Notes under the pieces: model-generated | Database searches by the model: none | What the model saw: the letters and a program-made list of their open reading frames with translations, nothing else | What the model was told of the DNA's origin: nothing | Shown here: piece after piece, positions 311 through 48,754 of the stretch | How the letters are laid out: each line of letters starts with the position of its first letter | How positions within the stretch are numbered: the first letter of the stretch is position 1 | DNA from: Methylomonas paludis | GTDB taxonomy: Bacteria; Pseudomonadota; Gammaproteobacteria; Methylococcales; Methylomonadaceae | Assembly: GCF_018734325.1 (NCBI RefSeq) | Contig: NZ_CP073754.1 | Coordinates: forward strand, 434,001 to 498,000 | Direction: 5' to 3' | DNA length: 64,000 bases | Translations under genes and position numbers: made by a program

Positions 311-339
311 TTGACCTGCCCATTTGTCAGGCTTAGAAT
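311..339 (+). promoter_or_regulatory. sigma-70 promoter of the riboswitch–nrdAB transcript
   Basis: TTGACC (311–316) and TAGAAT (334–339) are separated by exactly 17 bases, a near-consensus sigma-70 promoter. Initiation would fall near 346, just before the first conserved element of the cobalamin riboswitch and just after the second NrdR-like box. Confidence 0.75.
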
Positions 340-350
340 CTCCCCCTGAG

Positions 351-536
351 ATGGTTCCCCAAAAGGGGATTAAAAGGGAATTCGGTCGGTCAATATGGGC
401 GCATTTAGCCCAGTTGCCGGTATACCGAAGCTGCCCCCGCAACTGTACTCGGTGAGTTTTTAGTCCTGCATGCCACTGGATAGTAATCCGGGAAGGCCGA
501 TTAAAGATTACGACCCGAAAGCCAGGAGACCTGCCT
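351..536 (+). promoter_or_regulatory. Cobalamin (B12) riboswitch
   Basis: The leader carries the conserved landmarks of the adenosylcobalamin riboswitch in order: the 5' P2/P3 strand with AAAAGGGAA (372–380), the B12-box core GCTGCCCCCGCAACTGTA (430–447), GCCACTG (472–478), CGGGAAGG (489–496), and the 3' element GACCCGAAAGCCAGGAGACC (512–531). It lies between a strong promoter and nrdA on the same strand. Riboswitches of this class normally switch their gene off when B12 is abundant. A short hairpin (ACGAC/GTCGT, 602–617) between riboswitch and start codon may be part of the expression platform. Confidence 0.95.
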
Positions 537-679
537 TCGTCAAACTTAGTCAACCAGGAGCGGGGTGCCTCCAAAGACGATGGTAAGCCTATCTGGGTCA
601 GACGACTTTTCTGTCGTTTAATGATCAAATCGACTACTCATCATTTTGCCACTCCCGTTCCCCAGCCGTGGAGTACCGC

Positions 680-35454: not shown

Positions 35455-38400
35455 TCATGAAACCAGTTGAAAATCCGCCACACTCAAAGCGGCAGGATGA
35501 CTGTTTAAACCCACAATAGCAATTTCAACAGCTTGGCTGGCATCGTGCGCATCGTAATAAACGCCACCGTTGCTTTTATTGTAATAAAGAAAATCGTTAT
35601 GGCTGGTGGCTTTACCGGCGTTACTGAAGTTGGTGGCACTTATCGTGCCGGTGTTGGCAAAAGCGCCAAATGCTGTTTGCGATAATTCAATCTGGCCGTT
35701 ACCTTTAAAGTAATGATCAATTACCACCGGGGTGCCGGGTTTATTATCAAATAGATACAGCACCGGAATGGCGGCGATGCGACTGGTGCTAATCACTTCC
35801 ACAGCGTTGTTGACGCTGTCGGCAATATAAAGATTGCCGGCGTGGTCGGCCGAAATCGAATCAGCATTGACGTTGGCATCTATTCTGGTTAGGGTGTTGC
35901 TACCGACCGCAATTTCATCAATAACATTTATATTTCCCGAGCCATTCGCCACCTGGATAGCAGCTGAAAAGAAAATATTGCCCATACTGTCAACATCTAT
36001 ACTGTGACCACCAAAAGCGCTTAAGGTATCCAGCGTAGTTACCGCGTGATTACCGGCGCTGATTTCGTTGATATTAAGAGTACCGTTGAGCCAGCCTGAT
36101 GTGTAGGTAGTAAAATACAGATTACCCGCCTGGTCGATGGTCAGATTACTTAACTGGGCGTTTGCATAGCTGGCGAGTGTTTGCGGGGTATTGCTGCCGG
36201 CGGCTATTTCGATGATAGATTGACCATAGTAAATATCATTAACGGTAACAAAAAGGTCACCGCCGGCATCGACAGCAATACTTTGCGCGTTAACGCCTGT
36301 GAACAGCGTATTGGCGGCGTGATTACCGGCGGCAATTTCTGTTATCGCGCCATTGCCGTTATCTGCCACATAAACATTACCGCTGTTGTCTACCGCAACA
36401 CCAACCGGATTATTAAAGCCACTGGCTAGCGTAGTAACGGCATGGGTGCCGGCGCTAATCTCCTTAATAGCGTTATCGCCGCTATCGGCAACATAAATGT
36501 TGCCATTATTGTCCACCGCCGTACTGGTGGGATTGTTAAAACCGGTGGCGACAGCCGGTTCCTGCAGGCTGTTACTATCCAGTGGCAAAAGAGTGTCAAT
36601 TTGACCAGCACCAATCGTTTGCAAATCCGCCATACTGGCTTCAAACGTGGTATCCCAGGTTTGTCCGGTTTGTACCCCCCAGGGATTGCGTAAAATAAAA
36701 TCACCGGTCACACTGTCGTAACCGACTACACAAAAAGAGTGATCCGAGACAAAAGTGGTGCGCCCGCTGTTGTCCTGTCGGTCACCATAACAGTCAAAAA
36801 TGACTTCATCATTATCTTGTACCTCCTTGATCAGCGAGCTTTGCAGGCCAGTCCAGGCGTAAGCGTTATAGTTACTGCTGTTATAGGTATAAGCAGCTTT
36901 ATCGGTGATTAAAGTCAGCGCAGCACCGGAGTAGCCGCCGTTGATCACACTCCAGGCATTGCCTAATCCGCTTTCATTGAGCTGAATATAGGCTATTTCT
37001 ATCAGACTGGCCCAGATGTCGCTGTTCGAACGATTGCCAAGCAGAGTGCCGGAGTTTTCGTACAACAGGTTTTTGTTAACCGTAATATAGCTGGCAACGC
37101 CATCGATAAAGAATCTTACCCCATAAGTGCCATTGCCGTTATCGGTAAGCATGGTGGTAATGGCAGAAGATTCGCATTTGGCGACTTCAGCCAAAGCCGC
37201 CAACAGGAAGCAGTCATTAACATGGCCTTGATTGATATCCGTGATCACTGGGGTGCCGCTGGCATTGAAAATCGGGCTGGAGCTAAGCAAATAATGGCTG
37301 GAGCTGACTTGGTAATCTGAAAACGTCGCCGGTAAATCACCGCCCAAAAACCATTTTTGTATTAGCTCGCGGATTTGGTCGGCACTGCTGCCGATAGTCA
37401 GATTGCCCAGTGTCACTGCCGTAGCTGCTCCGCCAGTCCATGTGGCGTTTGTCGGATCACCGTTTATCAATTTATTACTGATGTTATACAGATAAGGCGA
37501 TACCTGAATGCCGCCCACAGTATTGAAGTTAGCCACCAAGGCCGTCAAGTCATGGAAAATATTAGCGGTAACACTGCCACGGGCGGCAATATCGTTCAGT
37601 ATTTTCAACATACCGCTGTAGCTGAGTGCGTCATTGCTGATCTGGGCAACGGCATCGGCACGAACGCCGGTATCCAGCAACTGATTAATCAAGGGGTTAT
37701 ATCCGCTGGCACTAAGGCCTAATGTACTGATCGCGGGTGAACTGTCACCGTCCCAATGGGATTTGATCCTAATATTGTAAGCTGTGCCGTTAAAGGTTTC
37801 AGTCCCATTAGAGTTAATAACAGTATTCACCTTGGTCTTGTCGGCTTTGCTCAAGGCCACACTAAACCCGCTGGCGCTAAAATTGCTGAAAGTATCCGTG
37901 GTGCTGAACGTGTAACTGCCGTTGCCAATGATTTTGAAGGCACTGAGTAAAATATTCTGGCTATTACCGTGTTTAACCAGATGGCTGCCGCTGAAGCTAA
38001 ACACGCCGCTTGCCGTATCGTAACTAACTGCGGTAATACTGGGAGCAACGGCATTGCTGACCATGACGCCCTGAGCGCCAAGTGGGTTGTTGCCGCCGTC
38101 CCAGCCTTTACTGGCCGATAGCTGGTATAAGGTTTTACCATCGCCGGCCTTAGCGCCATTCTGGTTAAGTAGGCCATCCACTGCCAGTTGGTCAGTTACA
38201 GAAAGTTGAATGGCGATACTATTGCTGCTGATGGCGCTGTTGATATAACTGTCAAGGCTTAAGATATAATTTGCGGCGCCATCGCCTTTAATGTGGAAGT
38301 CGTTGATCTTGTAATTGGCCGAGACTGAGCTGAAGTTACTGCCGCTCAGCGTCATAATCCCGGTGGCAGCGTCATAATCGGCTTGGCTTAAAACCGGCTT

Positions 38401-39096
38401 AAGGCCATTTACCGTAACAGCTTGGCCGTTGATGGCGGCACCATTATCACTATCCCACAGGCTGTTCGCGCTGAGTGTCAACAGAGTGGCGTTACTGACG
38501 GCAACTTGATTGAGTGTGGCTTTGTCGGCATTAGTTAGCGTAATCGTAAAACTATCAGTCTGTAGCTTGCTGATTATGTCTTTAGTGCTAAAGTTAAAAT
38601 GGAAATTGCCGCTGCTGTCGCTCAGCGTAAAATGGCTCAAATTAATGCCATTCGTATGCCCATTATTAACAAACAGGCTGCCGGAGAATGTCAGTACGCC
38701 TTTGGCAGCGTTATAACTGACAGCCGATAAAGTCGGAACTGTGGCATCACTCACCGTAATGCTTTGCATAACAAATGGTTTGGCACCTTTGTCCCAGCCC
38801 TTACCGGCAGCAAGAATATTAGCCGCGCCATTGTTTGCCAATTGGCCATTATGATTGAGCAGGCCATTGACAGCTAACTGATCAGTAGCCGAGATTTGTA
38901 TCGTCACACTATTGCTGGTCGGTGTACCTGACACCTTACTGCTATTGGTCAACTGATAAGTATGACCACCATCCCCCGAAATACTAAAGCTTGTCACCTT
39001 AAAGTCGCTAGCCCTGGTGGTGAAGTTAGCTCCGGTCAATATCAGTTGACCGTTGAATGCATCATAGCTAACGCTGGCAATTGAAGGTGGAGACAT
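35455..39096 (-). CDS. Large calpain-like cysteine protease with NHL repeats, probably type I secreted
   Basis: A 1213-residue mosaic. Residues 1–465 hold four repeats of about 115 residues in two alternating types (A-B-A-B), each opening like 'SVSYDAATGVLTLSG'. After a spacer (470–600) comes a calpain-family C2 protease core with oxyanion Q623, nucleophile C629 ('QGHVNDCFLLA'), H786 ('SDHSFCVVGYD') and N804 ('LRNPWG'); all are present. Residues about 850–1100 are NHL repeats ('AVDNSGNVYVADNGNGAI') forming a beta-propeller. The last 100 residues resemble the C-terminal signal of type I secreted RTX proteins ('LYYNKSNGGVYYDAHD', ending 'HPAALSVADFQLVS'). There is no N-terminal signal peptide. 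Export route and substrate are inferred. Confidence 0.85.
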   Translation of the reverse strand: MSPPSIASVSYDAFNGQLILTGANFTTRASDFKVTSFSISGDGGHTYQLTNSSKVSGTPTSNSVTIQISATDQLAVNGLLNHNGQLANNGAANILAAGKGWDKGAKPFVMQSITVSDATVPTLSAVSYNAAKGVLTFSGSLFVNNGHTNGINLSHFTLSDSSGNFHFNFSTKDIISKLQTDSFTITLTNADKATLNQVAVSNATLLTLSANSLWDSDNGAAINGQAVTVNGLKPVLSQADYDAATGIMTLSGSNFSSVSANYKINDFHIKGDGAANYILSLDSYINSAISSNSIAIQLSVTDQLAVDGLLNQNGAKAGDGKTLYQLSASKGWDGGNNPLGAQGVMVSNAVAPSITAVSYDTASGVFSFSGSHLVKHGNSQNILLSAFKIIGNGSYTFSTTDTFSNFSASGFSVALSKADKTKVNTVINSNGTETFNGTAYNIRIKSHWDGDSSPAISTLGLSASGYNPLINQLLDTGVRADAVAQISNDALSYSGMLKILNDIAARGSVTANIFHDLTALVANFNTVGGIQVSPYLYNISNKLINGDPTNATWTGGAATAVTLGNLTIGSSADQIRELIQKWFLGGDLPATFSDYQVSSSHYLLSSSPIFNASGTPVITDINQGHVNDCFLLAALAEVAKCESSAITTMLTDNGNGTYGVRFFIDGVASYITVNKNLLYENSGTLLGNRSNSDIWASLIEIAYIQLNESGLGNAWSVINGGYSGAALTLITDKAAYTYNSSNYNAYAWTGLQSSLIKEVQDNDEVIFDCYGDRQDNSGRTTFVSDHSFCVVGYDSVTGDFILRNPWGVQTGQTWDTTFEASMADLQTIGAGQIDTLLPLDSNSLQEPAVATGFNNPTSTAVDNNGNIYVADSGDNAIKEISAGTHAVTTLASGFNNPVGVAVDNSGNVYVADNGNGAITEIAAGNHAANTLFTGVNAQSIAVDAGGDLFVTVNDIYYGQSIIEIAAGSNTPQTLASYANAQLSNLTIDQAGNLYFTTYTSGWLNGTLNINEISAGNHAVTTLDTLSAFGGHSIDVDSMGNIFFSAAIQVANGSGNINVIDEIAVGSNTLTRIDANVNADSISADHAGNLYIADSVNNAVEVISTSRIAAIPVLYLFDNKPGTPVVIDHYFKGNGQIELSQTAFGAFANTGTISATNFSNAGKATSHNDFLYYNKSNGGVYYDAHDASQAVEIAIVGLNSHPAALSVADFQLVS

Positions 39097-39270: not shown

Positions 39271-40644
39271 TCAACTACTCTGCACCGCCTTAAACAATCC
39301 CTTAATGATCTCACTCTGTACCCCATGCTCAACCATCGGCCCCGGATAATCACCAACCAGTCCGCCATCCCGCTGCTGATCTATTTGCTTAGGGCTTAAG
39401 TCACGCAATTCCGGCAGCCAGCGCCGGATGTAAACACCATCCGGGTCGAATTTCTGTTGCTGTAGCCAGGGGTTAAAAATCCGAAAATAAGGCTGAGCAT
39501 CACAACCGGTTGAAGCCGCCCATTGCCAGTTGCCGTTGTTGATGCAAGGGTCATAATCAATCAACTGCTGGGCAAAATAACGCTCACCCCAGCGCCAGCT
39601 GATATGCAGATCTTTCACCAGAAAAGAGGCGGTAATCATGCGCAAGCGGTTATGCATCCAGCCGGTTTCCCGCAATTCCCGCATCGCCGCATCCACTATC
39701 GGAAACCCGGTGCGTCCCTCGCTCCAGGCCTGAAACCTATCCATATCTTTCTGCCAGGGGATGGCATCATACTGGCGGTGAAAGGCATGACCAAACACAT
39801 GCGGGTAATGGAAGGCGATATGACTAAAAAAATCTCGCCAGTACAACTGCCTGAGCAAACCGTGTTCCGATCCCAGTTCCTGCGCAATGGCGTAATAAGC
39901 TTCCCTAACTGAACAGCAACCAAATTTAAGATAAGCCGATAAGCCGCTGGTGGCGGCCAGCGCCGGAATATCCCTTTGCACTGCATACTCCCTGCACTCC
40001 GTGACTTTGTGTTCCAAAATCGCCAGCGCCGGGCTGCGACCACCACGAAAAGGATTATGGTGCGAGGTTTGTAACTGCTTTAACCAGTCCGGTTCTTTAT
40101 ACTCAGGATAGTGCTGGACAAACTTGCCGGTGCTGACTGTTTGCGGTAAGGCCACCGGTATTTGCCGGGCGCGCCGGTAGAAGGGGGTAAACACCTGATA
40201 AGGTTGCCTAGAATCTTTCAACACCTGTTCCGGCTCATTGAGTAACAGATCGGCGTAACTGTTAAAATCCAGCCCGGCTTGCCGGCAATAGTGCTGTAAA
40301 TCAGCATCGCGATGGCGGCTGAACGGCGTGTAATCACGATTTACAAATACCGCCTCAATCTGCTGTTCCTGCCGTAAGCGGCTAAGCACCTGTTCCGGTT
40401 GATCGTTAAACAGATACAGAACCCCGTTCAGCTGGTGGGCTTGCTGCTGTAAATCAGCCAGCGCTTCCAGCATGAACTGCAGGCCGGGTAAGCTTTGATA
40501 AGGGTGAGGTTCAATTTGGCGCGGATCAAGAATAAAACACAGTAACACCTTTTCAGAAGCGGCCAGTGCCGCATTCAGGCCCCGGTTATCTGCAAGCCGC
40601 AGGTCGCGGCGAAAGATAAATGCCGACAGGCGGTAGCGAAACAT
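39271..40644 (-). CDS. phrB: Deoxyribodipyrimidine photolyase (class I)
   Basis: Flavoenzyme of 457 residues that uses blue light to split UV-induced pyrimidine dimers. The N-terminal antenna domain begins 'FIFRRDLRLADNRGL'; the FAD domain has 'GRTGFPIVDAAMRELRETGWMHNR', 'SFLVKDLHISWRWGE' and the electron-relay/dimer region 'NNGNWQWAASTGCDAQPYFRIFNP'. It starts 5 bases after the SDR gene, forming a three-gene operon with the membrane protein at 41986. Cryptochromes share the fold, but the substrate region favours photolyase. Confidence 0.93.
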   Translation of the reverse strand: MFRYRLSAFIFRRDLRLADNRGLNAALAASEKVLLCFILDPRQIEPHPYQSLPGLQFMLEALADLQQQAHQLNGVLYLFNDQPEQVLSRLRQEQQIEAVFVNRDYTPFSRHRDADLQHYCRQAGLDFNSYADLLLNEPEQVLKDSRQPYQVFTPFYRRARQIPVALPQTVSTGKFVQHYPEYKEPDWLKQLQTSHHNPFRGGRSPALAILEHKVTECREYAVQRDIPALAATSGLSAYLKFGCCSVREAYYAIAQELGSEHGLLRQLYWRDFFSHIAFHYPHVFGHAFHRQYDAIPWQKDMDRFQAWSEGRTGFPIVDAAMRELRETGWMHNRLRMITASFLVKDLHISWRWGERYFAQQLIDYDPCINNGNWQWAASTGCDAQPYFRIFNPWLQQQKFDPDGVYIRRWLPELRDLSPKQIDQQRDGGLVGDYPGPMVEHGVQSEIIKGLFKAVQSS

Positions 40645-40649
40645 GTGAT

Positions 40650-41561
40650 TTAATGAGGTCCAAAAATATCGGCCAAGGCGGCCTCCAGGGCAGGATAGGC
40701 AAAACTGAAACCGCTGCTCAGCAACCGTTCAGGACTCACGCGCTGACTGCCTAACACAAGTTCTGCCATTTCTCCCAACAAAGCTTGTAATAGCGGAGCG
40801 GGCAGGTTTAACAGGGCTGGTCGGTGTAGTTGTTTGGCTAAAGCGGCGGAAAACTCGGCATTGGTCACCGGTGCCGGCGCGGTAAAATTAAAGGGACCGG
40901 ACAGCTCAGGGTGCTGAACTAAAAAATCCATCCCGGCCAGCCAATCTTTCCGGTGAATCCACGACATCCATTGTTGGCCGCTGCCCAGTTTACCGCCCAA
41001 CCCCAGCCGGTAGGCCGGCAGCATGTTCTGCAGCATACCGCCTTGCTGGTCCAGCACCAGGCCGGTTCTGATCAGACACACCCGAACCCCCAGGTTTTCA
41101 GCTTGCAATGCCGCCGCTTCCCAGTCAGAACAAAGCTGTTGGGAAAAATCTGTCTTGCCGGGGCTGGCTTCGGTTAACAAGGTATTCCCCCGATTGCCGT
41201 AAATGCCAATGGCCGAGCCGCTCAACAATACTTCAGGCTTTTGCTTCAGGCCGGCGATAAAAGCCAGCAGGTTTTCAGTGCCGGCGATACGGCTGTCGCG
41301 CAATAACAGCTTGCGGGCCAAACTCCAGCGTCCGCCAAAAATAGGGGCACCGGCCAGATTTACGATAACGTCAAACCGGCTGTCGGCAGACAATGTTTGC
41401 AGATTGGTGGTTATCTTAATGGCAGGGTGCAGATGTTTGGCGGCATCCGCCGGGTTACGGCTCAGCACCGTGATCTGCCAGCCTTGTCTTAGCCATAAAT
41501 CACATAAAGCTGCGCCCAAAAAGCCGCTGCCGCCGGTGATCAAAATATGTTTGCTGTTCAT
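40650..41561 (-). CDS. TIGR01777-type NAD-dependent epimerase (SDR39U1/YfcH-like)
   Basis: Extended short-chain dehydrogenase of 303 residues. It has the Rossmann motif 'ILITGGSGFLGAALC', the family's 'NLAGAPI' and 'SGSAIGIYG' and a C-terminal tail with 'LLSSGFSFAYPALEAALADI', which is diagnostic of TIGR01777. ATG 41561 overlaps the stop of the upstream membrane-protein gene as ATGA, which supports this start over the distal 41642. Homologues often sit with photolyase and LitR-type regulators in other proteobacteria (from memory). Its substrate is unknown. Confidence 0.88.
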   Translation of the reverse strand: MNSKHILITGGSGFLGAALCDLWLRQGWQITVLSRNPADAAKHLHPAIKITTNLQTLSADSRFDVIVNLAGAPIFGGRWSLARKLLLRDSRIAGTENLLAFIAGLKQKPEVLLSGSAIGIYGNRGNTLLTEASPGKTDFSQQLCSDWEAAALQAENLGVRVCLIRTGLVLDQQGGMLQNMLPAYRLGLGGKLGSGQQWMSWIHRKDWLAGMDFLVQHPELSGPFNFTAPAPVTNAEFSAALAKQLHRPALLNLPAPLLQALLGEMAELVLGSQRVSPERLLSSGFSFAYPALEAALADIFGPH

Positions 41562-41986
41562 TGTTGCGGGTGTGGTTTGGGTAGTTTTAACTGGATGCCT
41601 GCGTAGCATAAATGGGATAAACCCAAGTATAAAAACAGGCAACTATAATTATCGTCAACCGGTACCTGATTGATAAAACCGTAAAAATCGATCGACACCA
41701 TTAACAGTAGCACAAAAATGCCCATGATCAGAATGCCCTGAAATTGTTGCGTCAGCCGGCAATAGCTGTACACGGCAATTTCGGTGACACACAGATAAAT
41801 CAGCATTAAGCGGAAATTACCCATCATTGGTCCATACAGTTCGCTTTCATCAGCAAAAAACTGGCTCTCACCCTGAAAAGAAGTCAGGCTAACGTACAAT
41901 AAAAACAACAGAGCCGCATTAAAATTTAATACAGAAATCCATCTGAGTAAATTCACACTTTTGCCGACACTAATATTTTGCTGCAT
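41558..41986 (-). CDS. Four-TM membrane protein of unknown function
   Basis: A 142-residue integral membrane protein with four predicted helices (about 14–34, 58–75, 83–101 and 114–133). I cannot assign it a family; a short acidic loop ('FFADESELYGP') lies between helices 1 and 2. It is the first gene of the operon with the SDR (ATGA overlap) and photolyase. A hairpin with seven U residues ends only 17 bases before its start, leaving no room for a promoter in between, which suggests attenuation or read-through from upstream. Confidence 0.75.
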   Translation of the reverse strand: MQQNISVGKSVNLLRWISVLNFNAALLFLLYVSLTSFQGESQFFADESELYGPMMGNFRLMLIYLCVTEIAVYSYCRLTQQFQGILIMGIFVLLLMVSIDFYGFINQVPVDDNYSCLFLYLGLSHLCYAGIQLKLPKPHPQQ

Positions 41987-42011
41987 GATAATTACCTATA
42001 GCCAAAAAAAT

Positions 42012-42041
42012 GCCCTTCAGAAGTACTGCATTTTGAAGGGC
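42012..42041 (-). terminator. Intrinsic terminator or attenuator before the 41986 gene
   Basis: On the minus strand GCCCTTCA and TGAAGGGC pair (8 bp), and the RNA continues with a run of seven U residues (42010–42004), the classic intrinsic terminator form. It lies downstream of ftsH but only 17 bases before the ATG at 41986 of the membrane-protein/SDR/photolyase operon. Confidence 0.8.
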
Positions 42042-42088
42042 ACATAGAGGAGGAAAATAAATTCCTGCTGAGAGGCCATGTCGGACTA

Positions 42089-42119
42089 AGGGTTGATATA
42101 CATATTGCCTATCAACCCT
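42089..42119 (-). terminator. Hairpin just after ftsH
   Basis: AGGGTTGATA and TATCAACCCT form a perfect 10-bp stem with an 11-base loop, 10 bases downstream of the ftsH stop codon on the minus strand. It lacks a following U-run, so it may protect the ftsH 3' end while the second hairpin (42012–42041) does the terminating. Confidence 0.6.
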
Positions 42120-42128
42120 GGACTGTCC

Positions 42129-44027
42129 TCAGGATAGCGCCAATTGTCCTACATCGTTTACCGGCTCGGTACTGTCACTGTCTGCCGCTACTGGCTCGGC
42201 TATTTCTATCGGCTCCGGCTCCGGTTCTGGCGGCGCCAGCACCTTACCCTGCAGCAACTCATCAATCTGGAATTTATCAATGGTTTCCCAATCGAGCAGA
42301 GCATGAGCCATATTGTGCAGAATCTGCATATTCTCTTTGAGTATGGTTTCCGCCCGTAAATAGTTGCTGTCTATCACCTTACGGATTTCTTCATCGATGA
42401 TTTGTGCCATCTGTTCGGACATCGGCTTGGCTTGTGAGCCCATATAACCGCCTTCGTTATCGCCGTAATCCATAGGCCCCAGTCGGTCGGACAAGCCCCA
42501 TTTGGTGACCATGTTACGGGCTAGCTGGGTGGCACGCTGGATGTCGTTGGAAGCCCCGGTGGTGACTTTATTTTTGCCGTAAATCAGGGCTTCAGCCACC
42601 CGGCCACCAAACAGGCTGGCAATCTGGCTTTCCAGTTTGTCTTTGCTGGCGCTGTACTGGTCGCGTTCCGGCAAGAACATGGTAATGCCCAAAGCCCCGC
42701 CGCGCGGCATGATGCTGACTTTGTACACCGGGTCGTGTTCAGGTACGTTGCGGCCCACAATGGCATGGCCGGCTTCATGGTAAGCGGTCATCAGCAGTTC
42801 TTCCCGGCCCATGACCATGGTGCGCTTTTCGGCACCCATGATCATTTTGTCGCGGGCTTTGTCCAGGTTCTGCATGGTCACCACCCGCTGGTTGTTACGT
42901 GCGGCAAACAAAGCGCCTTCGTTGATCAGATTGGCCAGTTCGGCCCCGGAAAAACCGGGGGTACCGCGTGCCAGGTCGTTGATGTTGACATCATCGGCCA
43001 AAGGTACCCGGTTACCATGCACTTTAAGGATTTGTTCGCGGCCCTTCAGATCAGGCAAGCCCACTTGCACCTGCCGGTCAAACCGGCCCGGTCTGAGCAG
43101 GGCTTTATCCAGCACATCGGCACGGTTGGTGGCGGCTATCACAATAATGCCTTCATTGCCGCTAAAGCCGTCCATTTCCACCAGTAACTGGTTCAGGGTT
43201 TGTTCACGCTCATCATTACCGCCCCCCATGCCGGAAGCCCCGCGTTGCCGGCCTACCGCATCGATTTCGTCGATAAAAATAATGCAGGGCGCCCGCTTTT
43301 TGGCCTGTTCAAACATATCCCGCACCCGGGAGGCGCCGACACCGACAAACATTTCCACAAAGTCGGAACCGGAGATGGAAAAGAACGGTACTCCGGCTTC
43401 GCCGGCAATGGCTCTGGCCAGCAGGGTTTTACCGGTACCGGGAGGTCCCACCATCAACACCCCGCGCGGAATCTTGCCGCCCAGGGCTTCATATTTGCCG
43501 GGGGCTTTCAGAAAGTCCACCATTTCCACCACATCTTCTTTGGCTTCTTCCACTCCGGCCACATCGGTAAAACGCACCTTCACCTGATCTTCCGCCATCA
43601 GCTTGGCCCGGCTTTTACCAAAGCTGTTCTGGCCGCCGGCGCCCATTTGCTGTTGTTTGCGCATGAAATACACAAATACCGCAATCAATAATAAGGTTGG
43701 CGCCCAGGACATCACTATTTGCATGATGGTCGAAGGCTGTTCGGGTTTTTCAACTTTGATTTTTACCCCATATTCCAGCAATTCGTCGATCAGGCGCGGA
43801 TCATTGGGATTATAAGTATTGAAATATTCACCGCTTTGCCGGCGGCCTTCCACATTATTACCATCGATAACCACTTCGGCGATGGCGTGGCTGCGAATGT
43901 CCGCTATAAAGTCAGAATAGGTAACACTATAGTTTTGCTCGTAATGCGGGGTAGGGCGATTAAAATAATTAAAAAGTATCACACCAATCACGGTGAGTAC
44001 GGTAAAGCGGACAAGATGTTTTAACAT
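42129..44027 (-). CDS. ftsH: ATP-dependent zinc metalloprotease FtsH
   Basis: Membrane-bound AAA+ protease of 632 residues that removes damaged or unassembled membrane proteins. Two TM helices (about 4–24 and 105–123) flank a periplasmic domain; the AAA domain has Walker A '[11 protein letters not shown]' and the pore motif '[17 protein letters not shown]'; the zinc site is HEAGH. An acidic, Pro/Glu-rich tail ends the protein. It follows hflK–hflC on the same strand with a 123-base gap. In E. coli ftsH lies apart from hflKC, so this arrangement is compact. Whether this is the only FtsH of the organism cannot be seen. Confidence 0.95.
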
Positions 44028-44150
44028 GATAATGACCTCTGCAGATTTCAGAAACTAAGGCCCGGCAGGGCTGTGCCTGAATAACTGATTAAATTATATT
44101 CGGCAGACCGGTCTAGGGTTTAAACCGCAACCGGTCCGCCGATGTCAGCC

Positions 44151-45017
44151 TTATTTCTCGTTATTAAAATACCTGAAGAAATCCGAATCGGGTTTTAACA
44201 CCAGGGTGTCGTCGGTTTTTTCAAAGGCGGTTTGATAAGCCTGCAGGCTGCGGTAAAACGCATAGAACTCGGGGTTCTTGCCGTAGCTGGCCGCATAGAT
44301 TTCTGCAGATTCGGCATCAGCCCGGCCTCGGCGGTTTTCGGCTTCTCGCTGGGCGTTGGCCAGCAGGATCTGGCGCTGTTTGTCGGCTTCGGCGCTGATC
44401 AGTTCGGCGCTTTCGGCACCCTGGGAGCGGAATTCCCGCGCCACTCTTTCCCGTTCGGCGCGCATGCGCTGAAACACGGAGCTGCTGACTTCTGGCGGCA
44501 GGTCGATGCGTTTGATGCGAATGTCGATCAGTTCGATGCCGAATTTGCCGGCCACCGGGGCGAGTTTGTCCAGCAGGGTTTGGCCCAGTTCGCTGCGGTC
44601 TTCGGTGATCAGTTGTTTGATGGTGCGCAGGCCAAATTCGCCGCGCATGGCATCTTTCATGATCTGGTCCAGACGCAGGTTGGCCTGGTATTCGTCGCCG
44701 CCGACGGTGGTATAAAACAAGCCGACATCACCGATGCGCCATTTGGCGAAGGAGTCGACGATGACGTTCTTTTTTTCGGAGGTGAGGAAGCGTTCGGATT
44801 TGGTGTCCAGGGTCAGCACTCGGGCGTCAAAGGTTCTGACGTTGTTGATGATGGGGGTTTTGATATGCAGTCCAGGGGCAAATTCGGTGCTGACCATTTT
44901 ACCCAGCCGAAACAGGATGGCTTTTTGGTGCTGTTCGACATAGAACACTGACAGGTAGCCGGCCAGTAATACGGTGAGACTGGCCGGAATGATGAGGCTG
45001 AGAGTTTTGTTGTTCAT
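44151..45017 (-). CDS. hflC: FtsH modulator HflC
   Basis: Band-7/SPFH membrane protein of 288 residues. One N-terminal TM helix (about 6–24) is followed by the SPFH domain ('VEQHQKAILFRLGKM', 'IRIKRIDLPPEVSSSVFQRM') and a long helix rich in Arg, Glu and Ala. With HflK it forms a large cage around FtsH hexamers and restrains proteolysis of membrane proteins. It overlaps hflK by four bases (ATGA) and lies upstream of ftsH. Confidence 0.93.
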   Translation of the reverse strand: MNNKTLSLIIPASLTVLLAGYLSVFYVEQHQKAILFRLGKMVSTEFAPGLHIKTPIINNVRTFDARVLTLDTKSERFLTSEKKNVIVDSFAKWRIGDVGLFYTTVGGDEYQANLRLDQIMKDAMRGEFGLRTIKQLITEDRSELGQTLLDKLAPVAGKFGIELIDIRIKRIDLPPEVSSSVFQRMRAERERVAREFRSQGAESAELISAEADKQRQILLANAQREAENRRGRADAESAEIYAASYGKNPEFYAFYRSLQAYQTAFEKTDDTLVLKPDSDFFRYFNNEK

Positions 45018-46171
45018 GGTTTGCTCCGGCTGGGACGTAGTTCGGGGGCGGCGGCTTTGTGGTTATGGGCGGCTTCGCCGCTGTTGTCCGGGCTGCCGAG
45101 GTCAGCTACGGGGTGTTTGCTGCCGGCGGCCTGGGCTTCGGCATTGGCCAGCGGCATGTAGAATTGCGGGGCGTTCTGGGTGGATTCGATCAGGATTTTA
45201 CGACTGCCGCTATAGAGTTTTTCTTTGGCTTCCAGATACAGGCGTTTGCGGGTAATGGCGGGATTTTTTTCGTATTCCACCAGAAGTTGATCAAAGCGTT
45301 CGGTTTCGCCTTTGGCTTTAGCCACTTTTTCGGCCTGGTACGCATCGGCTTCCTGGAGTAAACGGGCAGAGGCGCCACGGGCTTTGGGCAGGATTTCGTT
45401 GCTGTAGGCTTCGGCTTCGTTGATCAGGCGCTGTTTGTCTTCACGGGCGCGGATGGCGTCTTCAAAAGCCCCTTGTACTTCTTCAGGCGGCTGGGCGTCT
45501 TGCAGGTTGACGCTGGCGATGGTGATGCCGGCCTGATAGCGGTCCATGGCGGTCTGGATCTGACTTTTGATTTCGGCCACGATTTCGCTGCGACCTTCGG
45601 TCAATACAAAATCCATATCATGCTGGCCGATCACGGCGCGTTCCACGCTTTCGGTCAGTTGTTTCAAAGTGGCTTCGCTGTCTTTGACATTGAACAGATA
45701 GTCTTTGGCATTATTGATCTGATACTGCACCGCCAACCGGACATTGATGATGTTCTCATCCCGGGTCAGCATCAGCGACTCCTGGGGAATATTGGCGGCT
45801 TTGGCAAAGCGTCCGGAATCGCGGTAGCCCACTTCGATAAAGCGTTGCTGTTCCACATTCACCACTTTCACGCTTTCCAGCGGCAGCGGCCAATGCCAGT
45901 TCAGGCCGGGCAAGGTGGTGTCGGCATAAGCGCCAAACCGGCTGACCACGCCTCGGTTGCCCTGATCGACAATATACCAGCCGCTGCCCAGCCAGGCCAC
46001 CAGCAGCCCGGCACCGGCTACTGCCGCCACTTTCTGCACCCCAAACAGTTGCTGATGGGATTGATAAAAGTCACTGCCGCGCTGGCTCAGGCGTTGCCAG
46101 TGCTTATCAATCTCCGCTTTCCAATCGGGTGGCGGAGTGGGTTTGCTGGTGTTAGGTTTTTCTGTAGACAT
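45014..46171 (-). CDS. hflK: FtsH modulator HflK
   Basis: SPFH/band-7 partner of HflC, 385 residues. A Pro-rich N-terminus, one TM helix (about 48–68) and the band-7 domain ('VDQGNRGVVSRFGAY', 'SVNLQDAQPPEEVQGAFEDA') are visible, ending in a low-complexity tail. The RBS AGAGGAG is strong. It starts 41 bases after the stop of the sigma-factor gene on the same strand, so it could be read from the sigma-gene promoter, which would tie FtsH control to that regulator. Confidence 0.93.
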   Translation of the reverse strand: MSTEKPNTSKPTPPPDWKAEIDKHWQRLSQRGSDFYQSHQQLFGVQKVAAVAGAGLLVAWLGSGWYIVDQGNRGVVSRFGAYADTTLPGLNWHWPLPLESVKVVNVEQQRFIEVGYRDSGRFAKAANIPQESLMLTRDENIINVRLAVQYQINNAKDYLFNVKDSEATLKQLTESVERAVIGQHDMDFVLTEGRSEIVAEIKSQIQTAMDRYQAGITIASVNLQDAQPPEEVQGAFEDAIRAREDKQRLINEAEAYSNEILPKARGASARLLQEADAYQAEKVAKAKGETERFDQLLVEYEKNPAITRKRLYLEAKEKLYSGSRKILIESTQNAPQFYMPLANAEAQAAGSKHPVADLGSPDNSGEAAHNHKAAAPELRPSRSKP

Positions 46172-46212
46172 GGTAACTCCTCTTATTAAAGTGACTAGGC
46201 TCTGGTCATTTC

Positions 46213-47499
46213 TCAGCTGTCATTCGGCTCAAGAAAAAGCACCAGATCGTAGCCAAACTGTTCTTTTAGTTTTTTTAAGGCTTGGTTTTGTATTTGTCTG
46301 ACACGCTCCCTAGTCACTTGTAATTGATCGGCAATAGCCTGAAGAGTCATTTCGGTATGATTTTTCAAGCCAAAGCGCATATTCAGAATGGTCGCTTCCT
46401 TTTCCGGCAGGCTGGCAACCACATTCTCTATATATAAATTCAGGTTGTTATCAATCAATTCAGACAAAGGTAGCGAAAACTGTTGTTGCTGCAGGCTATC
46501 CATTAGAGTCAAATCGTCATTTTCTTCGGAAATGGCGGCATCCAGAGAATGGGTCGCCTGAAAATAACTACTGACCGTTTTTATTTCTTCCACGCTTAAA
46601 TCGCATTCCTTTTCCAGTTCCGCTTGGCTGGGCCAGCGATTGTGTTCCAGATAACAATTGCGCATCACTTCAAAAACGGCAGAAGCTTTCTCGGCCAGAG
46701 CGATCGGCAGCCTTACCACTCGGTCCTGTTTCACGATCAGCCGGGAAATAGCCTGCTTGATCCAGAAAACCGCATAAGTGGAAAAACAGATGCCGCGATT
46801 GGGGTCGAAGCGGTCAACCGCCTTAATCAGCCCCACCATACCTTCCTGCATCAGATCATCAAAACTCAGCTGTGTGGTTTTATACTTATGGGCAATAAAT
46901 GCTACCAGGCCGGTATTAGACACAATCATTTGTTCGCGCAACGCTTGTAATTGATAACGGCTTTTTAACACCTGCTTTTTATAAAGTGCGTCACTACTGG
47001 ATGGTTCGGGGTGCTTTTGGCTAATAATCGGCTCAGTCAGTTGGATCAGATAAGCTGAGTAAAAATGGCAGCTGCCCAGCAGTTCAATGGTAGTGTCTGA
47101 AGCGGTCCTAAACTCACCTGAACTTGGTACATTACCCTGTACAGAGTCATTGTTTTGTACAATACTGTTGCACAAGCTTGTCAAGGTTTTGTAATTGATG
47201 TTGTCGTCACCATCCTCACTGCCGGTTTTGGCTAATTGTGCGGACATTAATTGGCAGGCCAGATTATTTTGCAGCAGTAATTGTTGCAGTTGTTGTCTGG
47301 CCAGTTCCATCGTTGTCGCCAGTTGTTGCGCGGCATTCAGGTCTGCATCCTGCTTGGCAGCGCTGTTGGCGGCACGGCTGGACACGCGGTTTTTAGGCGT
47401 CTGATCCGGCTTTTGGCGTAACTCCGCACTAGACAATGACAGGTCTGCCAATGGAGCAACAGTTCTTTTTTGTAATGGATAAAATTCTAGTAGTGCCAT
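46213..47499 (-). CDS. Atypical sigma-70 family RNA polymerase sigma factor
   Basis: A 428-residue sigma factor. Regions 2–4 are clear: region 2 'GLVAFIAHKYKTTQLSFDD' through 'GICFSTYAVFWIKQAISRLI', region 3 around 'RVVRLPIALAEKASAV', and region 4 'MRFGLKNHTEMTLQAIADQL' plus the HTH 'VTRERVRQIQNQALKKLKEQ'. The first 200 residues are unlike RpoD or RpoS region 1: Gln/Asn/Ser-rich, helical, with no recognisable region 1.2. It is divergent from the CarH-like regulator 91 bases away and precedes hflK by 41 bases. Group 2/3-like; I infer an alternative, condition-specific sigma. Confidence 0.85.
   Translation of the reverse strand: MALLEFYPLQKRTVAPLADLSLSSAELRQKPDQTPKNRVSSRAANSAAKQDADLNAAQQLATTMELARQQLQQLLLQNNLACQLMSAQLAKTGSEDGDDNINYKTLTSLCNSIVQNNDSVQGNVPSSGEFRTASDTTIELLGSCHFYSAYLIQLTEPIISQKHPEPSSSDALYKKQVLKSRYQLQALREQMIVSNTGLVAFIAHKYKTTQLSFDDLMQEGMVGLIKAVDRFDPNRGICFSTYAVFWIKQAISRLIVKQDRVVRLPIALAEKASAVFEVMRNCYLEHNRWPSQAELEKECDLSVEEIKTVSSYFQATHSLDAAISEENDDLTLMDSLQQQQFSLPLSELIDNNLNLYIENVVASLPEKEATILNMRFGLKNHTEMTLQAIADQLQVTRERVRQIQNQALKKLKEQFGYDLVLFLEPNDS
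47138..47161. promoter_or_regulatory. TGTACA-N12-TGTACA palindrome inside the sigma gene
   Basis: Two TGTACA half-sites separated by 12 bases match the TRTACA-N12-TGTAYA pattern that I recall for light-responsive LitR/PplR regulators. It lies in codons of the sigma gene's N-terminal extension, where two Val-Gln codon pairs create the half-sites, so coincidence is possible. No in-frame ATG follows before region 2, so it is unlikely to mark an internal start of a full sigma factor. Confidence 0.35.
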
Positions 47500-47572
47500 G
47501 ATATTCCCACGAGCAAGAATTAAGTTGGCGATAAAGTTATCTCAATGTACAATGTTTGTCAAATAAAAAACT

Positions 47573-47596
47573 TATACAAAACTTAAACAATGTATT
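47573..47596 (+). promoter_or_regulatory. Operator-like site over the start of the CarH-like gene
   Basis: TATACA-N12-TGTATT spans the ATG at 47590 and fits the TRTACA-N12-TGTAYA pattern at all but the last base. A repressor of this family bound here would block its own gene, as autoregulation in this family often does. A further isolated TGTACA lies at 47546–47551 in the same intergenic space. Confidence 0.4.
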
Positions 47597-48495
47597 CGAT
47601 CAAAGCAATTGCCTCATTGACTGGCCTCGGACCAGAAACCCTACGAGCATGGGAGCGCCGCTATCGGATAATAGTTCCGCAGCGTGATGAAAATGCTCAT
47701 CGTTTTTATTCCCAGCTGGATTTGGAAAAACTGCTGCTGTTGGCGGATTTGACCCGGCAGGGTCATGCCATCAGCAAATTGTCCGGTTTGAGTGTAGAAG
47801 AACTACAGAAGCTGTCGCTTCCAGCCACTGTTGTAACCGATCATACGCTGGCTTTTACCGAACAAATTGTCCAGGCCTTGCAGGATTATCGAATAGACCG
47901 CTGCGAGCAGTTGCTGAAACGGGCGCTGTTGGCAAGTGAGCCGCTGGTTTATCTGCGCGATATACTCAGTCCGACTCTGACCAGTGTTGGAGAACTGTGG
48001 CACGAAGGAAAAATCAATGTTGCCCAGGAACACATGTTTTCAGCTTGTGTAAAGCGTATCCTGCTGGGCATGGTTAACAATATCCGCAGCATTTCCGCCA
48101 ATCGGCCCGGCATACTGTTTGCCACGCCCAGCGGGGATCGTCATGAATTCGGGATTTTGATGTGTTGTTTGCTGGCTGCCGAACAGCACTACAACTGCTA
48201 CTATCTTGGCCCTAGTGTCCCTGCCGCCGATATGCTGGATGCCGCCCGCAAGCTGAAAGTCGATATTATTGTGTTAAGTTTGATAAAAACCCCGCCTGAG
48301 CCAGAAACCGAAGCCGCCTTGAATGCGGTAGTAACAGCGGCAAAAGCAGAAAAATTTAATATTTGGTTGGGTGGGCACGGCGTAGAATATTGGCAAGGCC
48401 AGTATCCGGATTTGGCCCGGTATTGTGAGATGATCGCGAATATTGATGGTTTTTACAGCAAAGCCGTACGTTGGCGGGTTGGGGTGCGGGAGTGA
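47590..48495 (+). CDS. MerR-type regulator with B12-binding domain (CarH/LitR-like photoreceptor)
   Basis: A 301-residue regulator: N-terminal MerR helix-turn-helix ('IKAIASLTGLGPETLRAWERRY'), a helical capping domain, and a C-terminal Rossmann B12-binding domain. The capping motif W-x9-EH is intact (W137, E147, H148), with H138 at the place of the histidine that forms the light-induced adduct in CarH. The B12 motif D-x-H-x-x-G is present as D183, H185, G188. These residues predict adenosylcobalamin binding and light-triggered release from DNA. It is divergent from an atypical sigma factor; ftsH–hflKC and photolyase genes follow on that strand. Confidence 0.9.
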   Translation: MYSIKAIASLTGLGPETLRAWERRYRIIVPQRDENAHRFYSQLDLEKLLLLADLTRQGHAISKLSGLSVEELQKLSLPATVVTDHTLAFTEQIVQALQDYRIDRCEQLLKRALLASEPLVYLRDILSPTLTSVGELWHEGKINVAQEHMFSACVKRILLGMVNNIRSISANRPGILFATPSGDRHEFGILMCCLLAAEQHYNCYYLGPSVPAADMLDAARKLKVDIIVLSLIKTPPEPETEAALNAVVTAAKAEKFNIWLGGHGVEYWQGQYPDLARYCEMIANIDGFYSKAVRWRVGVRE

Positions 48496-48570: not shown

Positions 48571-48754
48571 AGAATCTCCCGCCTGCGCCGTCTCGTGCTT
48601 TCGTCCTTGAACCGAAGGTTCAAGTGGAAACAAATCCAGTCAATCAGGCTTCCTGAAAAAAACAGGCATGCACACCATGAAAGGTAAAAAGTTTCCGGGG
48701 TAAAAATAGGTTCAGGAAACACCCAGCACTGCTCGAACGCCGCAGGAGATAGGG
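48571..48754 (-). ncRNA. ssrS: 6S RNA
   Basis: On the minus strand directly after zapA. The 3' part contains TTGAACCTTCGGTTCAAG, the conserved hairpin also found in E. coli 6S RNA, followed by GGCGCAGGCGGGAGATTC, and the 5' part ATCTCCTGCGGCGTTCGAGC pairs with that end to form the closing stem. TAGAAT (48765–48760, minus) is a well-placed -10. 6S RNA mimics an open promoter and sequesters sigma-70 polymerase in stationary phase. The zapA–ssrS order is conserved in gammaproteobacteria. Ends are estimated to within a few bases. Confidence 0.88.

What the first reader, a model, noticed from the sequence alone, without database searches (positions are those of the whole stretch)
39271..48495. Candidate B12/light-controlled module coupling sigma factor, FtsH–HflKC and photolyase
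A CarH/LitR-type photoreceptor with all light-sensing residues is divergent from an unbroken minus-strand block: atypical sigma factor, hflK, hflC, ftsH, four-TM protein, TIGR01777 SDR and photolyase. LitR-type regulators are known beside photolyase, SDR and sigma genes, but inclusion of the FtsH membrane-protease complex is, as far as I know, not described. Light would release the repressor, raise the sigma factor and, through read-through, membrane-protein turnover plus DNA photorepair. This resembles FtsH's role in removing photodamaged proteins in chloroplasts.
Basis: inference. Interest (0 to 1): 0.78.

Follow-up and report, generated by a model that had tools for sequence, protein, structure and literature searches.

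The report
Light-switched membrane-protease operon in methanotrophs
In some methane-eating bacteria a vitamin-B12 light sensor sits beside, and appears to control, an operon for an extra membrane-protein shredder whose RNA tail matches the start of a key methane-oxidising gene, which would give sunlight a handle on methane consumption if experiments confirm it.

Summary
In 33 of 33 family genomes found with the orthologous CarH, carH is linked to ftsH (one a fragment); a divergent sigma gene is present in 32 of 33. This FtsH is a paralogue apart from the housekeeping copy.

Three putative CarH sites: an 11-bp direct repeat over the sigma gene's -35, one at the carH start, and TGTACA-N12-TGTACA inside the sigma coding sequence, the genome's only perfect match to the LitR consensus and conserved.

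The block is not unbroken: a conserved terminator follows ftsH, and photolyase is linked in 3 of 33 relatives. Before the terminator lies an anti-Shine-Dalgarno box (31 of 34 loci) complementary to the pmoB ribosome-binding site. In one genus where that site differs, the box differs to match.

Most likely: light releases CarH, inducing sigma-HflKC-FtsH plus a 3'-UTR RNA that restrains pMMO synthesis. Light control is well supported by sequence; the RNA-pmoB step is suggestive. Nothing here is experimental.

The parts
47590..48495 (+). carH/litR-type B12 photoreceptor repressor
   Evidence: Domains, residues
47573..47596 (+). Putative CarH site at the carH start: 11-bp repeat pair TATACA-N5-TAAACA, also one mismatch from the LitR consensus
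47534..47562 (-). Sigma promoter TTGACA-N17-TAACTT with TnnACA repeat 11 bp from the -35
   Evidence: TTGACA in 34 of 34 loci, repeat in 25 of 34; -10 by eye
47138..47161 (.). TGTACA-N12-TGTACA inside the sigma gene, putative CarH operator
   Evidence: Only perfect match in the genome; 0, 1 or 2 mismatches in 25, 6 and 2 of 33 relatives; codon constraint
46213..47499 (-). Sigma-70 family factor of no curated type
45014..46171 (-). hflK
   Evidence: TIGR01933 over cut-off
44151..45017 (-). hflC
   Evidence: TIGR01932 over cut-off
42129..44027 (-). ftsH paralogue
   Evidence: TIGR01241 over cut-off; tree
42004..42054 (-). 3'-UTR element: anti-Shine-Dalgarno box (42054-42044) and intrinsic terminator
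41558..41986 (-). Four-TM protein of unknown family, beyond the terminator
   Evidence: in 30 of 33 relatives
40650..41561 (-). TIGR01777 SDR, beyond the terminator
   Evidence: in 13 of 33 relatives
39271..40644 (-). Photolyase, beyond the terminator
   Evidence: in 3 of 33 relatives

Best explanation
This is a light-induced membrane-protein quality-control operon of gammaproteobacterial methanotrophs. In the dark, AdoB12-bound CarH sits on the -35 of the sigma promoter, on its own start region, and on a third operator about 360 bp inside the sigma gene (a block or a DNA loop). Light breaks the cobalt-carbon bond, CarH lets go, and sigma-hflK-hflC-ftsH is transcribed up to a conserved terminator. 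FtsH-HflKC then clears photodamaged inner-membrane proteins; the sigma factor spreads the response. The four-TM, SDR and photolyase genes beyond the terminator get only leaky read-through or other control. Shown by sequence: the parts, their conservation, promoter and operator motifs, terminator. Inferred: light and B12 dependence, operator occupancy, FtsH substrates, sigma regulon.
For: Domains and light-sensing residues. carH-ftsH linkage in 33 of 33 orthologous loci, sigma gene in 32, and ORFs for hflK in 25 and hflC in 27. TTGACA at the sigma promoter in 34 of 34 loci; TTGACA-N5-TnnACA, the 11-bp repeat spacing published for CarH (passages of PMC9304148), in 25 of 34 with the nn letters varying. 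TGTACA-N12-TGTACA, the LitR consensus (passages of PMC9758184), occurs once without mismatch in the 3.67-Mb genome, inside the sigma gene; same place with 0, 1 and 2 mismatches in 25, 6 and 2 of 33 relatives. There the Val codons are GTA (31 of 31 and 25 of 25) against 12% GTA elsewhere in these genes. G098 lost the sigma domains but keeps promoter and operator before hflK. The operon FtsHs form a clade, support 100/99. A short LOV-like gene lies near the operon in 10 of 33 relatives, an MsrP gene in 8, a BLUF-PsiE gene in 3.
Against: CarH scores 120.8 bits, below the NCBIfam CarH equivalog cut-off of 400. Nine of 34 loci have TGTACT, not TnnACA, in the sigma promoter repeat. At one mismatch the genome has 14 LitR-type sites against 10 for the reversed control, so single imperfect sites such as the one at the carH start mean little alone. 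hflKC is missing or truncated in several relatives, and G110 keeps only a piece of ftsH. Motifs are not proof of binding. No expression data were available.
Confidence: 0.68

Rival explanations
1. Extension rather than replacement: the conserved 3' UTR of ftsH is released as a small RNA whose seed UCCUCCUCUAU covers the pmoB ribosome-binding site, so light lowers synthesis of particulate methane monooxygenase while FtsH removes damaged copies.
For: Box plus T run after ftsH in 31 of 34 loci. Complement plus start codon found in 31 of 37 same-genus genomes, 41 hits against 4 for the reversed control pattern; 25 of 30 fetched loci are pmoB starts (own copy is Monooxygenase_B, 623 bits, and TIGR03079 over cut-off). 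Longest uninterrupted pairing with the genome's own pmoB site is 13 nt in the window's genome and 9 to 14 nt in 18 further standard-box genomes. Own duplex -21.2 kcal/mol, first of 182 own-genome ORF entries scored, pmoA -9.8 and pmoC -11.0; given a fixed core, chance of such energy is 0.002. In genus g20 the box (TTCTCCTCCAAC in 3 of 30 FtsH loci, those with tm4 and hflC neighbours) and the pmoB site (TTTGGAGGAGATAT in 4 of 4 genomes read) both differ, giving a 10-nt run; across lineages the runs are 6 or 7. Energies: g20 pairs -17.4 to -19.7, standard boxes on the g20 site -13.1 to -15.2. Hfq gene present.
Against: The pmoB site is as conserved in genomes without the locus (14 of 25 perfect against 20 of 25 with it), so it is ancestral and kept for other reasons. 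The core resembles any anti-Shine-Dalgarno; given that core, a 10-nt run in g20 has chance 0.053 and the g20 energies 0.24 and 0.07. The G122 box pairs almost as well with two standard sites (-18.9). The pmoB sites of G545 and G139 were not read; the G122 site was used for them. pmoB had been picked before the ranking, which covered only held stretches with some regions repeated. Two loci lack any such box (L047, L064). RNAalifold gave no consensus pairs. No RNA evidence.
Confidence: 0.42
2. The genes are a constitutive or stress-induced sigma-FtsH operon and CarH controls only itself or an unlinked function; linkage is inherited neighbourhood.
For: No expression data; CarH beside photolyase without FtsH is common elsewhere (15 of 40 class-level loci); of 27 fetched loci of the second CarH group in the family, 22 have no FtsH nearby.
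Against: Repeat over the sigma -35 and an operator inside the sigma gene under DNA-level constraint; linkage in 33 of 33 loci across seven genera; in G098 the operator stayed while the sigma domains went.
Confidence: 0.15
3. The internal TGTACA-N12-TGTACA is a protein motif (VQ-x4-VQ) of the sigma factor, not an operator.
For: It is in frame and encodes VQxxxxVQ or nearly so in the 31 genes compared.
Against: The base before each GTA is T in 31 of 31 at both sites against 23% T at third positions; where Val is kept it is always GTA against 12% elsewhere; the second Val is Ala or Leu in 6 of 31. The surrounding protein is poorly conserved, and the motif survives where the sigma domains are lost. 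The 31 were chosen by at most one mismatch, which favours this count slightly (L040 and L057, with two, were left out).
Confidence: 0.08

Closest known systems
CarH (Thermus, Bacillus, Myxococcus) and class I LitR
   Same: MerR plus two B12 domains, conserved axial and upper-face residues, repeats overlapping a -35 box (passages of PMC9304148, and of PMC10442372).
   Different: Targets named in those passages are carotenoid genes; here the divergent target is a sigma factor with FtsH-HflKC, and one putative operator lies inside the coding sequence.
Pseudomonas class II LitR (PplR1, PmlR2)
   Same: Same operator consensus T(G/A)TACA-N12-TGTA(C/T)A (passages of PMC9758184).
   Different: Class II lacks one B12 domain and PmlR2 works with a short LOV protein; here both B12 domains are present. 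A short LOV-like gene lies near the operon in 10 of 33 relatives, not seen beside the operon in the window.
FtsH-HflKC of E. coli
   Same: Same families above curated cut-offs; separate housekeeping ftsH and hfq-linked hflKC are also present.
   Different: A paralogous set in one operon with a sigma gene and a photoreceptor.
Chloroplast and cyanobacterial FtsH in photodamage repair
   Same: FtsH removing photodamaged membrane proteins (abstract beginning of PMC6019477 in a search listing; otherwise recalled).
   Different: No photosystem is implied; a methanotroph with pmoCAB. No homology claim beyond FtsH.
lac O2 and similar operators inside genes (recalled)
   Same: A repressor site a few hundred bp inside the first gene.
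   Different: Different repressor family; looping not tested.
Rhodobacter photooxidative-stress small RNAs (abstract of PMC8307010; CCUCCUCCC-motif RNAs recalled)
   Same: Sigma factors plus small RNAs in a light-linked stress response; a CU-rich motif.
   Different: Different class of bacteria and different genes; no sequence relation tested.

Membership tests
Class I LitR/CarH photoreceptors | MerR HTH plus B12-binding_2 and B12-binding domains | tested here: met
   All above Pfam cut-offs.
Class I LitR/CarH photoreceptors | Axial histidine and upper-face W, H, E, H residues | tested here: met
   W137, H138, E147, H148, H185 aligned to Thermus CarH; roles of His132 and His177 in passages of PMC10442372, the other three positions recalled.
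Class I LitR/CarH photoreceptors | NCBIfam CarH equivalog NF052513 cut-off | tested here: not met
   120.8 bits against 400; so a relative by architecture and residues, not filed as the equivalog.
Class I LitR/CarH photoreceptors | Operator of 11-bp TnnACA repeats including a -35 | tested here: met
   TTGACA-N5-TGTACA in the window; 25 of 34 loci. Only two full repeats.
Class I LitR/CarH photoreceptors | AdoB12 binding and light-driven release of DNA | not testable with these tools
   Needs protein.
FtsH-HflK-HflC complex | FtsH, HflK, HflC family models | tested here: met
   TIGR01241 836.4 (cut-off 600), TIGR01933 310.1 (159.4), TIGR01932 278.2 (134.4).
FtsH-HflK-HflC complex | Assembly and proteolysis | not testable with these tools
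   Needs protein.
RpoD, RpoS or RpoH sigma factors | Curated equivalog scores | tested here: not met
   Regions 2, 3 and 4 present; RpoD 212.5 of 555, RpoS 201 of 378.7, RpoH 130 of 323.1 (25 of 53 families shown).
8-HDF type or E. coli type photolyase | TIGR03556 or NF007955 cut-off | tested here: not met
   360 of 884.6 and 350.9 of 506; Pfam photolyase domains met.
3'-UTR-derived small RNA | Conserved seed followed by an intrinsic terminator | tested here: met
   Box in 31 of 34 loci; fold z-scores -2.97 to -4.78 in the six tested.
3'-UTR-derived small RNA | Base-pair covariation of a consensus hairpin | tested here: inconclusive
   RNAalifold on A1 predicted no pairs, perhaps because stems lie in two registers; hairpins were seen locus by locus.
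3'-UTR-derived small RNA | Expression, processing, Hfq binding | not testable with these tools
   Only the presence of an hfq gene was shown.

The most novel reading that the evidence does not exclude
A B12-based daylight switch on methane oxidation: one light-induced transcript supplies a sigma factor, a dedicated membrane protease that clears photodamaged membrane proteins including pMMO, and a 3'-UTR small RNA that covers the pmoB ribosome-binding site, so that methanotrophs stop making and start removing methane monooxygenase in sunlight.
Probability: 0.35. Interest if true: 0.9.

Novelty: new variant of a known kind. Interest (0 to 1): 0.74.

Why it matters
If true, it extends B12 photoreception from pigment genes to membrane proteolysis, and offers a testable mechanism for the light inhibition of aquatic methane oxidation that others report or suggest (passages of PMC7474682 and PMC12211021), a term in lake methane budgets. 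It would also be a clean case of a light-repressor operator embedded in a coding sequence.

Tried and rejected
Photolyase as core of the module: rejected, 3 of 33 relatives within the fetched stretches; the SDR is more frequent (13 of 33) but lies beyond the terminator. A promoter near the internal operator: looked for by eye in the 25 loci printed, none conserved. Genome-wide CarH regulon: at one mismatch 14 sites against 10 for the reversed control, so little excess beyond this locus. Same linkage outside the family: 0 of 40 loci (40 of the 49 outside-family places were fetched, several short). In the second CarH group of the family 27 loci were fetched, not all that one search lists. Compensation in the consensus hairpin: RNAalifold found no pairs. 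The nine adjoining invariant letters of alignment A1 are no evidence, because they are the very string by which the rows were chosen. Presence of the pmoB site as proof of co-evolution: rejected because control genomes share it. Helical phasing between operators: by hand positions, nothing seen. Four-TM protein structure: not attempted. Dropped rows: one search used 31 of 34 loci (L040 and L057 with two mismatches, L064 without sigma left out); the FtsH tree used 21 of 33 relatives; A1 has 28 distinct of 31 sequences; one search compared 20 genomes of the 25 with a pmoB site read plus the window. Rfam at gathering cut-offs found only 6S RNA and a cobalamin riboswitch in the window. Paper searches that led nowhere further: (listings).

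Full report
Where it is. The window is part of a 3.67-Mb single-contig genome with two pmoA-type matches; one lies in an AmoC-AMO-Monooxygenase_B gene order, so a methanotroph. The closest named hit is a Methylococcaceae MAG.

Observation. CarH keeps the residues of the Thermus photoreceptor but scores below the curated CarH equivalog cut-off. The sigma factor has regions 2, 3 and 4 and a long N-terminal stretch and reaches none of the RpoD, RpoS or RpoH cut-offs.

Conservation. In 151 family genomes the CarH search gave 34 strong orthologues (E below 1e-70) in seven genera, counting the window; weaker hits are a second CarH-like group and long frames that look like methionine synthase. All 33 relatives have ftsH beside carH (a fragment in G110); 32 have sigma, 30 the four-TM gene, 13 the SDR, 3 a photolyase. 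ORFs for hflK were found in 25 and for hflC in 27, two of the latter short. Of 27 fetched loci of the second group 5 have ftsH nearby, and of 40 fetched loci of other families none.

Dedicated FtsH. The own genome has four FtsH-like genes: this one, a 91% copy, a 69% copy and a 44% copy. The 69% copy lies between an FtsJ-like and a phosphoglucomutase-like gene, the arrangement of housekeeping ftsH (recalled). The operon FtsHs form their own clade, 100/99 (30 rows, 21 of 33 relatives). The 91% copy sits with hflK and hflC that are 99.4% identical in DNA over 2033 bases, while the ftsH N-terminus and tail differ: a gene-conversion pattern.

Control region. On the minus strand TTGACA (47562-47557), 17 bp, TAACTT (47539-47534) precedes sigma; TTGACA is at this place in 34 of 34 loci. 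Eleven bp on is TnnACA in 25 of 34, TGTACT in 9, to be compared with published CarH operators. A second repeat pair overlaps the carH start. The perfect LitR-type site lies at 47138-47161 in the sigma gene, about 360 bp from its start; it is the only perfect match in the genome. In relatives it has 0, 1 or 2 mismatches in 25, 6 and 2 of 33. Codon evidence points to DNA-level constraint; since loci were chosen by at most one mismatch the test is slightly circular, but only 2 of 33 were left out for that reason. In G098 the sigma domains are gone, a short ORF remains, and promoter and site persist in front of hflK.

Terminator and 3' UTR. After ftsH a hairpin next to a T run was returned in 33 of 34 loci, weakly in L039; L037 left no gap to scan because its ftsH frame runs on. 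Six folded examples have z-scores from -2.97 to -4.78. The box CTCCTCTAT with its upstream letters precedes a T run in 31 of 34. The four-TM, SDR and phr genes therefore lie outside the main unit, though they are tightly packed among themselves.

pmoB. The reverse complement of the box followed by ATG hits 31 of 37 same-genus genomes; 25 of 30 fetched loci are pmoB starts, and three of the other five look by eye like the 3'-UTR element read backwards. The own gene is subunit B by Pfam and NCBIfam. Against the pairing idea: control genomes without the locus share the site (14 of 25 perfect; 20 of 25 with the locus). For it: pairing runs of 13 nt in the window's genome and 9 to 14 nt in 18 other standard genomes; first rank of 182 ORF entries with pmoA and pmoC unremarkable (pmoB had been picked beforehand, only held stretches were scored, some twice); and a joint difference in g20. 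There 3 of 30 FtsH loci, the ones with four-TM and hflC neighbours, carry TTCTCCTCCAAC; carH itself was seen beside it only in G122. The pmoB sites of G122, G020, G068 and G086 read TTTGGAGGAGATAT. The run is 10 nt; across lineages it is 6, once 7. The null for a 10-nt run with the core kept is 0.053, and for the g20 energies 0.24 and 0.07, so this is support, not proof.

Literature. CarH with FtsH: 3 papers, none relevant by title and abstract beginning. LitR, sigma factor, photolyase, light: 8, one opened by passages (PMC9758184). FtsH, HflK, HflC, light, photolyase terms: 98 papers, 20 listed, none with this linkage by title and abstract beginning. Methylomonas, photolyase, light, FtsH: 0. 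pmoB, sRNA, methanotroph: 2, one opened by passages, no such RNA mentioned there. Particulate methane monooxygenase with small regulatory RNA: 0. Light inhibition, methane oxidation, methanotroph: 6, two opened by passages. The library lacks most subscription journals.

Verdict. The core is a conserved, very probably light-controlled sigma-HflKC-FtsH operon, new as a combination of known parts. The pmoB-directed RNA is the most exciting reading and needs an experiment.

Noticed in passing
G000:C1:2133604-2137600 (L090): Second hflK-hflC-ftsH set; hflKC 99.4% identical in DNA to the window copy but the ftsH N-terminus and tail differ, suggesting gene conversion.
   Followed up: partly
window 48572-48751 (-): 6S RNA gene directly downstream of carH and beside zapA.
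   Followed up: no
window 335-552 (+): Cobalamin riboswitch; regulated gene not examined.
   Followed up: no
L033:592-3428, L039:14530-15414: Relatives carry near the operon a short PAS/LOV-like protein (best NCBIfam hit the YtvA blue-light family, below its cut-off), a lipid-transport-like protein, a fatty acid hydroxylase, MsrP (over its cut-off) and a BLUF-PsiE protein.
   Followed up: partly
pmoB leaders, for example L188: A small inverted repeat CTCTA...TAGAG overlaps the pmoB ribosome-binding site in many family genomes (by eye).
   Followed up: no
L036 (G110): hflK, hflC and most of ftsH are gone, yet carH, sigma, the box, terminator and four-TM gene remain.
   Followed up: partly
window 44101-44141 (-): Inverted repeat between hflC and ftsH (by eye).
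   Followed up: no
window 35455-39096 (-): 1213-aa protein with a calpain-family protease domain and NHL repeats.
   Followed up: partly
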